Made by a program: the position numbers and the translations under genes. Of a stretch of 34,130 nucleotides of DNA, positions 8,492-27,159 are shown in pieces; within the stretch, counting starts at the first letter, position 1; each line of letters begins with the position of its first letter. The stretch comes from Clostridiales bacterium. Its GTDB lineage: Bacteria; Bacillota; Dethiobacteria; Dethiobacterales; Dethiobacteraceae. The stretch is taken from NCBI GenBank assembly GCA_018335855.1, contig JAGXRM010000046.1, forward strand, positions 1-34,130, written 5' to 3'. The notes under the pieces are model-generated. The model saw only the letters and a program-made list of their open reading frames with translations, made no database searches and was not told the DNA's origin.

Positions 8492-9031
8492 ATGAAAAAG
8501 ACCATAATCATCATGTCTTTTGCTGTCGTTGCCCTGGCTGCCCTTGCCATGCTGCAAGGCGGCACAGCTTTTGTCATGCAAGGGGTTCTTGCCGGCGCCT
8601 TCATGCTGTGGAGTGTCTTGCCTCTTCTTGTGGCAGCCTTCGCCCTCAGCGGTCTGGTCCAGGTTCTTATCAACCCGGAACAGGTCGGCCGCATTCTTGG
8701 TAAAGGTTCCGGAGTGAAAGGAATATTACTGGGCTCCGTAGCCGGCGGCCTTCTCCCCGGCGGCCCGTACGTATACTTCCCCATCGCCGCTTCGTTTGCC
8801 GCCTGCGGTGCGGAAGCGCCCACAATCATGGCCTTCGTTATCGCCAAATCCCTCTGGGACCTTTCCCGGATTCCCATGGAAGTGGCCATTATGGGCGGCC
8901 GCGTTGCCGCTATCCGCCTCCTGGTCACCTTCCCCCTGCCGGTTATTATCGGCCTGCTAACCCATTGGCTGTACCCCAACCTCACAGAAACACTCCTGCC
9001 TGTGAAAAAGGAAGGTGAAACAGAGTGTTAA
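8492..9031 (+). CDS. Half-size permease, first subunit (PF03773-like)
   Basis: A 179-residue, very hydrophobic protein with about five membrane segments. Its core, LLGSVAGGLLPGGPYVYFPI followed by AAS and then PMEVAIMGGR, resembles one half of the predicted permeases of the DUF318/ArsP group. Family members are usually single chains of about 300 residues or more with two repeated halves. Here the second half is a separate gene that overlaps this one by 7 bp. A TATAAT at 8463-8468 and AGGAGG at 8481-8486 precede the ATG. The substrate is unknown. The Cys motif of arsenical permeases is not evident. Confidence 0.72.
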   Translation: MKKTIIIMSFAVVALAALAMLQGGTAFVMQGVLAGAFMLWSVLPLLVAAFALSGLVQVLINPEQVGRILGKGSGVKGILLGSVAGGLLPGGPYVYFPIAASFAACGAEAPTIMAFVIAKSLWDLSRIPMEVAIMGGRVAAIRLLVTFPLPVIIGLLTHWLYPNLTETLLPVKKEGETEC

Positions 9032-9519
9032 TAACCGTGCTGATTCTCACCGCCCTGGCGCTTGCGCTGTTCTTTGTCGCTCTAAAACGCCGGGACGACA
9101 GTCATAAAGAAGGCGTTATCATCGGCGCCAAGCTCTTTTATAATTATCTGCCGCTATTGCTCCTGGCCTTCCTAGCCGCCGGCCTGCTGCAGGTGGCTCT
9201 CCCGGCCGGGGTGGTCCGCAACTGGCTTGGCGCCGAAGCCGGCTTCCGCGGCATCCTGATCGGCAGTGTGGCCGGCATGTTTATTGCCGCCGGTCCCTAT
9301 GTGTCCTTTCCCATCTTTGCCTCTATCATGGTAAGCGGCGCCGGCATCGGCACTGCCGTTGCCCTGCTCACCAGTTGGTCCTTGATGACCTTCTCTAAGC
9401 TCCCCTTCGAAATCGCCCTCCTGGGCCCCCGCTTCACCATCGCCCGCTATTCCCTGGTCATTATCATGCCTGTTATCGCAGGCTTTATTGCCCATTTCTT
9501 TTTTGCCGGCATAATTTAA
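9025..9519 (+). CDS. Half-size permease, second subunit (PF03773-like)
   Basis: A 164-residue membrane protein paralogous to the gene before it. LIGSVAGMFIAAGPYVSFPI aligns with LLGSVAGGLLPGGPYVYFPI upstream, and LPFEIALLGPR aligns with IPMEVAIMGGR. The start is GTG at 9025, overlapping the previous stop (GTGTTAA) and preceded by AAGGTGA, so translation is coupled and equal amounts are expected. The two proteins probably form a heterodimer equivalent to one full-length permease. The substrate cannot be inferred from neighbours. Confidence 0.72.
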   Translation: MLITVLILTALALALFFVALKRRDDSHKEGVIIGAKLFYNYLPLLLLAFLAAGLLQVALPAGVVRNWLGAEAGFRGILIGSVAGMFIAAGPYVSFPIFASIMVSGAGIGTAVALLTSWSLMTFSKLPFEIALLGPRFTIARYSLVIIMPVIAGFIAHFFFAGII

Positions 9520-9705: not shown

Positions 9706-9734
9706 TTGCAATTCAATCCGTACCATGGTATAGT
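9706..9734 (+). promoter_or_regulatory. Promoter of the 49-codon gene
   Basis: TTGCAA at 9706-9711 and TATAGT at 9729-9734 are separated by 17 bp. They lie 39 bp upstream of a small ORF that has a strong ribosome site. Confidence 0.65.
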
Positions 9735-9773
9735 CAGTACATTATTATTTTTAACAGAGAGGAGGCGGTGTGA

Positions 9774-9923
9774 ATGCCGTTTATGAGTTTGTTGGAACGT
9801 ATTGCAAAAGCAAACGAGAAAGAGTATCAAGGGAATCGGCTTTCAACTAGCAGATTAAACCGTCCCTGCAGGAAGAAGAAAGTACTCACCCCCTATCTTA
9901 ACATCCGTCGTAAATGTGATTGA
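9774..9923 (+). CDS. Small basic protein, 49 aa, unknown
   Basis: The ATG at 9774 is preceded by GAGAGGAGG and opens a 49-codon frame ending TGA at 9921-9923. The product begins MPFMSLLERIAKANEKEYQG and has a basic second half with clusters CRKKK and IRRKC. It has its own sigma-A-type promoter (9706-9734) and a strong intrinsic terminator (9956-9989), so this is a complete monocistronic unit. No family is recognised. Two Cys residues and the net positive charge could suit a nucleic-acid-binding or secreted peptide, but that is speculation. A small regulatory RNA that also encodes this peptide is an alternative. Confidence 0.6.
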   Translation: MPFMSLLERIAKANEKEYQGNRLSTSRLNRPCRKKKVLTPYLNIRRKCD

Positions 9924-9955
9924 TTAGGCAGCAAACTATAATCAATAATTCCACG

Positions 9956-9989
9956 AAAAGAACCGTGCCCCTCCCTGCACGGTTCTTTT
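9956..9989 (+). terminator. Intrinsic terminator after the 49-codon gene
   Basis: AAAAGAACCGTGC (9956-9968) pairs perfectly with GCACGGTTCTTTT (9977-9989), with an 8-nt loop and a T-run. It is a textbook rho-independent terminator. Confidence 0.9.
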
Positions 9990-10119
9990 CATATAAAGAT
10001 TGTCTTAGCAGGAATATGGCTCATTTCTATCGAATTCAACAGTAATTATTACTATAGGATTTCTTCCCCAAAAAAATATTCCGACATCGCAGGGATAATT
10101 GCTCTTCACGCATAATATT

Positions 10120-26942: not shown

Positions 26943-26989
26943 CCATCATCCAGACTCTGTCATCCCTCACCACGAGGAGACACGTAACT

Positions 26990-27140
26990 ATTACAGGCAG
27001 GTCTCCTGACTCAGGTTCATCGCTACCTGCCACCTTCCCCCAGATTCGGAGTGGTATCCGGCATTAGCTCACCATTACAGTGACGGGTTCGTCCGGGAAT
27101 CTCACCCGGTTTCCTATTCTCCCTTACGGGCACCTGTAAT
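26990..27140 (-). promoter_or_regulatory. Cobalamin (AdoCbl) riboswitch
   Basis: The minus strand carries the B12 aptamer. P1 is formed by ATTACAGG at one end (27140) and CCTGTAAT at the other (26990). Inside are GGGAGAATAGGAAACCGGGT, then ATGCCGGATACCACTCC and the conserved GGGGGAAGGTGGCAG box and GAGTCAGGAGACCTGCC. These elements define the class. It lies between a strong promoter and a terminator, so it is a transcriptional OFF switch: cobalamin binding stops synthesis of the lower-ligand genes. Confidence 0.95.
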
Positions 27141-27159
27141 AATACTATTCTTTGTGGTC

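What the first reader, a model, noticed from the sequence alone, without database searches (positions are those of the whole stretch)
9706..9989. Self-contained small gene: promoter, strong ribosome site, 49 codons, terminator
All four parts are present within 284 bp and there is no link to neighbours. The protein is basic, has two Cys residues and matches nothing I recognise. It is too short for most annotation pipelines and is a good candidate for an overlooked regulator, toxin or dual-function RNA.
Basis: seen in the sequence. Interest (0 to 1): 0.5.

Follow-up and report, generated by a model that had tools for sequence, protein, structure and literature searches.

The report
Tiny metal-protein cousin without cysteine pair
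The short stretch is a real, self-contained gene for a 49-residue protein related to small copper-associated bacterial proteins, but it lacks their metal-binding cysteine pair, so it has probably taken on a different, still unknown job.

Summary
In detail: a 49-codon ORF at 9774-9923 (+), AGGAGG 8 nt upstream, a 14-bp terminator-like hairpin at 9955-9990 (z -6.5) and a promoter-like TTGCAA-17-TATAGT that is at chance level by score alone. The ORF is protein-coding: a profile of 14 relatives built without it ranks it first of 998 six-frame segments of the window (E 6.7e-13; next 2.6), and pairs of relatives show purifying selection (dN/dS about 0.08-0.22 in three pairs). It does match something: the N-terminal helix of NCBIfam NF040898, 'LDCC motif putative metal-binding protein' (22.9 bits, under the 30-bit cut-off). 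The same genome keeps a true DCC copy beside a heavy-metal P-type ATPase; here DCC reads STS. Stand-alone relatives without the pair occur in 7 other genomes of its family and in one distant genome of the phylum; in 4 of them the gene is divergent to lemA. Best reading: an unnamed CC-less branch of the LDCC mini-protein clan, helix plus variable tail, likely a protein-binding accessory rather than a metal binder. Toxin and RNA readings have no support. New variant of a known kind; moderate-low interest.

The parts
9706..9734 (+). promoter-like TTGCAA-17-TATAGT with TG before the -10 (not significant by score alone)
   Evidence: same hexamers before G009b
9760..9765 (+). Shine-Dalgarno AGGAGG, 8 nt before ATG
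   Evidence: SD-like sequence found before each of the 12 genes listed
9774..9923 (+). 49-codon gene P0001 (stop TGA 9921-9923), CC-less relative of the LDCC mini-proteins
9783..9833 (+). codons for residues 4-20 (MSLLERIAKANEKEYQG), the part shared across the clan; helix 6-18 in a low-confidence model
9843..9851 (+). codons TCA ACT AGC (Ser24-Thr25-Ser26), in the ungapped register of Asp-Cys-Cys of the LDCC proteins
9955..9990 (+). terminator-like hairpin, 14 bp, loop 8, T-run inside the 3' arm

Best explanation
Shown: a protein-coding gene laid out as a single-gene unit. Its product shares the N-terminal helix (consensus LLERIAxANxxxFQG) with the LDCC mini-proteins (NF040898) but has Ser-Thr-Ser where they have Asp-Cys-Cys, followed by a lineage-specific basic tail. 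Inferred: it arose from a copper-operon-type LDCC mini-protein, lost the thiol pair and no longer binds metal there; the conserved amphipathic helix docks on a protein or membrane partner and the variable tail tunes the contact, so that it acts as a small accessory or adaptor protein made from its own unit. The partner is unknown. Divergent pairing with lemA in four relatives and permease neighbours in two genomes weakly suggest an envelope-linked role.
For: Profiles built without P0001 find it first of 998 six-frame segments: 14 relatives E 6.7e-13, six CC-less 1.6e-9, six LDCC 1.2e-6. NF040898 hits: of nine CC-less relatives scanned, six below the cut-off (14.5-24.2 bits), one just above (G185a, 30.9), none for G017 and G010. 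Selection: dN/dS 0.10/1.24 (G008/G014), 0.31/1.42 (G010/G015), 0.21/1.30 (G009a/G009b); G008/G017 pN 0.37, pS 0.84. Relatives repeat the layout: hairpins with T-run downstream, z -2.1 to -8.7 for the 90 nt after the stop in G008, G014, G015, G010, G009a and G009b; G006 has a 12-bp hairpin but z -1.7; G185's two genes show one by eye. In G006 a relative lies near the same permease pair. The own-genome DCC paralogue sits beside an HMA P-type ATPase, near an ArsR-type regulator. Helix moment 0.51, reached by 145 of 5000 shuffles.
Against: No function or partner is shown. P0001 has no close orthologue: no match in the one other same-genus genome held, none in genome contigs except the G008 contig. 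Selection is thus shown on relatives and for P0001 only over 13 codons, at near-saturated synonymous sites. The tail differs between genera. Structure models are poor (mean pLDDT 61 and 53). P0001 is about equally close to DCC and CC-less relatives, so its place in the RRLTPS branch is not settled. Divergent lemA is seen in 4 of 12 lemA-bearing family genomes and not in the window's genome. For G017 no clear terminator lies within the 90 nt folded.
Confidence: 0.5

Rival explanations
1. It still handles metal or thiols: Cys32 and Cys48, perhaps in a dimer, replace the lost pair, so it remains a metal sponge or chaperone.
For: The clan is linked to metal: DCC paralogue beside a heavy-metal ATPase; the module also ends a YHS-domain protein. 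The long relatives in G008, G014 and G017 have five Cys each at similar places.
Against: Cys number varies from 0 to 5 across the CC-less relatives; P0001's Cys fall in no DCC column. The flanking permeases hit ArsP_1 PF03773, a 'predicted permease' family, which is at most a weak metal link.
Confidence: 0.18
2. It is a recent, decaying duplicate of the LDCC gene that still looks intact.
For: No match in the other genus genome; tail unlike its relatives; the same genome holds a shortened copy at C45:63437-63493 running into LGT-like sequence (LGT likeness by eye).
Against: Intact frame, SD and hairpin; 91 of 160 differences from 11 relatives lie in third positions over the helix (comparisons not independent); CC-less genes persist in several genera.
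Confidence: 0.14
3. Toxin (type I-like or other) or small basic regulator such as a nucleic-acid binder.
For: Small, net +9, its own unit; G009a (+8), G009b (+5) and G185b (+8) are basic too.
Against: No hydrophobic segment; no hit in PADLOC or Pfam; six RRLTPS-type relatives are near neutral, net -2 to +4. An antisense antitoxin was not searched for.
Confidence: 0.08
4. The RNA is the product, or it is a dual-function RNA.
For: Compact unit with a strong hairpin.
Against: Third-position-biased substitutions, no Rfam match, no shared leader beyond the SD seen by eye. RNA structure conservation was not tested.
Confidence: 0.05
5. Chance ORF.
For: Short; promoter score at chance level.
Against: E 6.7e-13 to a profile that excludes it.
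Confidence: 0.01

Closest known systems
NCBIfam NF040898 CC_mini_metal, LDCC motif putative metal-binding protein
   Same: N-terminal helix and FQG turn, size, stand-alone small protein; E 5.5e-5 over profile 4-24
   Different: 22.9 bits against cut-off 30; Asp-Cys-Cys replaced by Ser-Thr-Ser; no heavy-metal ATPase beside it
   Same: LLERIAxANxxxFQG helix, then R-L and a Leu; own SD; 36-43% identity for five, 34% for G017
   Different: P0001 is one residue shorter after QGN and lacks the Cys-rich end shared by G008, G014 and G017
YHS-domain proteins with the same C-terminal module (L103)
   Same: Helix module FLYRLAESNAEEFKG, NF040898 32.2 bits
   Different: Fused behind a YHS domain, ends in SCH

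Membership tests
NF040898 LDCC mini-protein | Score at or above the curated cut-off (30 bits) | tested here: not met
   22.9 bits
NF040898 LDCC mini-protein | Conserved DCC cysteine pair | tested here: not met
   STS at residues 24-26 in ungapped register
NF040898 LDCC mini-protein | N-terminal helix (F/L)LE(R/K)(I/L)AKxNEKEF.G | tested here: met
   residues 3-23 match profile 4-24; alignment
NF040898 LDCC mini-protein | Metal binding | not testable with these tools
   'putative' in the family name itself; needs biochemistry
CC-less RRLTPS branch (defined here) | Found by a profile of that branch built without P0001 | tested here: met
   E 1.6e-9, first of 998 segments; A6, three rows without it, E 2.8e-4 in its genome
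CC-less RRLTPS branch (defined here) | Exact RRLTPS motif | tested here: not met
   reads R-LSTS, one residue shorter
CC-less RRLTPS branch (defined here) | Conserved gene neighbourhood | tested here: inconclusive
   permease pair shared with G006 only; divergent lemA in 4 of 12 lemA-bearing family genomes, not here
Type I toxin | Short hydrophobic membrane-spanning peptide | tested here: not met
   highest 19-residue Kyte-Doolittle mean -0.59
Type I toxin | Antisense RNA antitoxin | not tested
   no search made for one beyond Rfam (no match there)

The most novel reading that the evidence does not exclude
The CC-less proteins form a separate, unnamed family of autonomous mini-proteins in a few Bacillota lineages, in which a metal-site mini-protein has been turned into a dedicated protein-protein or envelope regulator. 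The 33-residue stand-alone form in G185 would be its minimal version.
Probability: 0.25. Interest if true: 0.5.

Novelty: new variant of a known kind. Interest (0 to 1): 0.33.

Why it matters
It suggests that the LDCC mini-protein helix exists as an independent, selected unit without the supposed metal site, so the helix has a function of its own. That makes the role of an apparently unstudied mini-protein family testable and points to small genes that the 30-bit cut-off of the family model misses.

Tried and rejected
Chance ORF: rejected. Pfam gave no family. Phage or plasmid origin: no tblastn match at E <= 1 in either collection; PHROGs only E 0.16 and 0.32 for P0001, and E 0.021 (phrog_627, unknown function) for the G008 protein, not pursued. 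Solved structures: two hits at E 0.049 and 0.092, taken as chance. No fold search was run because both models are low-confidence. TIGR03584 hit to G009a (18.3 against 205.7 bits) and the Pfam hits (DUF1272 E 0.14, DUF7335 E 0.037, both under cut-off) were taken as chance. The G007:C73 match (E 8.7e-4) was read and I saw no such gene there; dropped. Other weak matches were mostly not read (for example G058 E 0.0018 and G046 E 0.0096, G028 E 0.0107); a few were read and dropped.

Of the 24 loci L116-L139, 12 gave an ORF by the motif used: 9 DCC, 1 SCC, 1 SCH, 1 CC-less; the other 12 were not classified there. In one search the strand was handled wrongly for L058 (G016) and L060 (G006): G006 was reread, G016 rests on genome-wide searches without a match. 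Promoter comparison across relatives gave no excess over random sequence (35 of 300 at best, G009b, up to 294 of 300, G006). The DCC paralogue's own downstream side has no hairpin (z +0.76), as expected inside an operon. One search timed out without output and was rerun faster.

Literature: search listings only, no paper opened. 'LDCC motif' had 0 occurrences in the 10 of 18 papers that one search listed; two searches found no paper. Class name (Dethiobacteria) and guesses at G009 and G185 (Dethiobacter, Natranaerofaba) are recall from genome sizes, not results; the one record named was L159, 'MAG: Bacillota bacterium isolate AS20ysBPTH_186'. 'Type I toxin', MazEF and transposase likenesses are recall or by eye.

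Full report
What is there. The window carries a 49-codon ORF, 9774-9923 on the + strand, with AGGAGG 8 nt upstream, a 14-bp hairpin with a T-rich 3' arm at 9955-9990 (z -6.5), and TTGCAA-17-TATAGT at 9706-9734. By score the promoter is at chance level for such AT-rich DNA (114 of 300 random versions do as well); it is plausible mainly because the same hexamers and spacing precede one relative, G009b.

It is a coding gene. A profile from 14 relatives without P0001 finds this frame first among 998 six-frame segments of the window at E 6.7e-13, the next at E 2.6; six CC-less relatives alone give 1.6e-9, six LDCC proteins alone 1.2e-6. Relatives are under purifying selection: G008/G014 dN 0.10, dS 1.24; G010/G015 0.31, 1.42; the G009 pair 0.21, 1.30; G008/G017 pN 0.37, pS 0.84. 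Random placement of the same substitutions gave pN minus pS as low in 0, 2, 0 and 0 of 1000, and as many third-position differences in 0, 17, 3 and 1 of 1000. For P0001 against 11 relatives over 13 helix codons, differences by codon position sum to 40, 29 and 91; these comparisons share P0001 and their synonymous sites are near saturation.

What family. P0001 matches NCBIfam NF040898 (LDCC motif putative metal-binding protein) over its helix, 22.9 bits against a cut-off of 30. A true DCC member lies in the same genome (C11:40569-40712; 52.4 bits), next to a P-type ATPase with two HMA matches, near an ArsR-type regulator and an LGT gene. In the ungapped register, its Asp-Cys-Cys is Ser-Thr-Ser in P0001. 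A third, short copy lies at C45:63437-63493.

Relatives without the Cys pair. In the 97 genomes held of the class, profile searches found RRLTPS-type genes in G006, G008, G010, G014, G015 and G017 besides the window (7 of 97, all in one family of 19 held genomes; G017 reads RRLSFT), and two further CC-less genes in G009. In 398 genomes drawn from the phylum, G185 has two more, of 77 and 33 residues; half of the loci were not classified. G185 is one of 3 held genomes of its class; the other two gave no match to the CC-less profile. G008, G014 and G017 share a longer, Cys-rich tail, absent from P0001.

Neighbourhood. In G006, G010, G015 and G017 the small gene is divergent to lemA (Pfam LemA tested in G006 and G017, DUF2207 behind it tested in G006 only). 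Twelve of 19 family genomes have a lemA by search; in the other eight I saw no such gene within 800 nt on the divergent side. In G006 the order is small gene, lemA, DUF2207, then the permease pair, so up to the small gene the window's order and strands equal G006's with lemA-DUF2207 taken out; beyond it the neighbours differ (a hydrolase in G006, an FMN-binding protein here). In G009, G012, G018 and G004 I saw no such gene downstream of the permeases. Orthology with G006 is thus suggested, resting on one genome.

Mechanism. The model of P0001 has one helix, residues 6-18, and no other element, at low confidence (mean pLDDT 61); the moment of residues 3-18, 0.51, is reached by 145 of 5000 shuffles. 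No stretch is hydrophobic enough to span a membrane. The tail is basic (net +9); six RRLTPS-type relatives range from -2 to +4, while G009a, G009b, G185a and G185b have +8, +5, +3 and +8, so basicity is shared by some and not by all. I infer an accessory protein that docks by its helix and no longer binds metal at the DCC site. That step is inference, at about even odds; the coding status and the clan are shown. Metal, decay, toxin and RNA readings are kept as rivals.

Novelty. The clan is known to me only as a putative metal-binding model; the held library's listings named it nowhere that I saw. The CC-less branch has no model of its own in Pfam or NCBIfam as far as tested, although the 77-residue G185 protein just passes NF040898 (30.9 bits). 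New variant of a known kind.

Noticed in passing
window 26979-27152 (-): Cobalamin riboswitch, 108.5 bits, complete model match.
   Followed up: no
window 8492-9519 (+): Two adjacent half-size permeases (each hits ArsP_1/PF03773), a pair with close matches in six other family genomes.
   Followed up: partly
G000:C45:63437-63493 (-), locus L089: Shortened LDCC-like ORF (MLDFLKKFMERLAKTNEKEAW) running into LGT-like sequence (by eye), looks like a broken copy; the own-genome DCC gene also lies near LGT.
   Followed up: partly
L086 5066-7342 (G009): Two CC-less copies about 2 kb apart, separated by a transposase-like ORF and an ORF pair resembling MazEF (both by eye), with the same downstream hairpin.
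   Followed up: no
L101, L103, L106, L107, L108, L112: The LDCC-type helix module forms the C-terminus of YHS-like proteins ending in SCH or SCHG in other families of the class; the YHS domain was tested in L103 only.
   Followed up: partly
L202 1492-1593 (G185): A 33-residue stand-alone gene that is little more than the helix plus GRISYQKL, with a strong SD and a downstream hairpin with T-run by eye.
   Followed up: no
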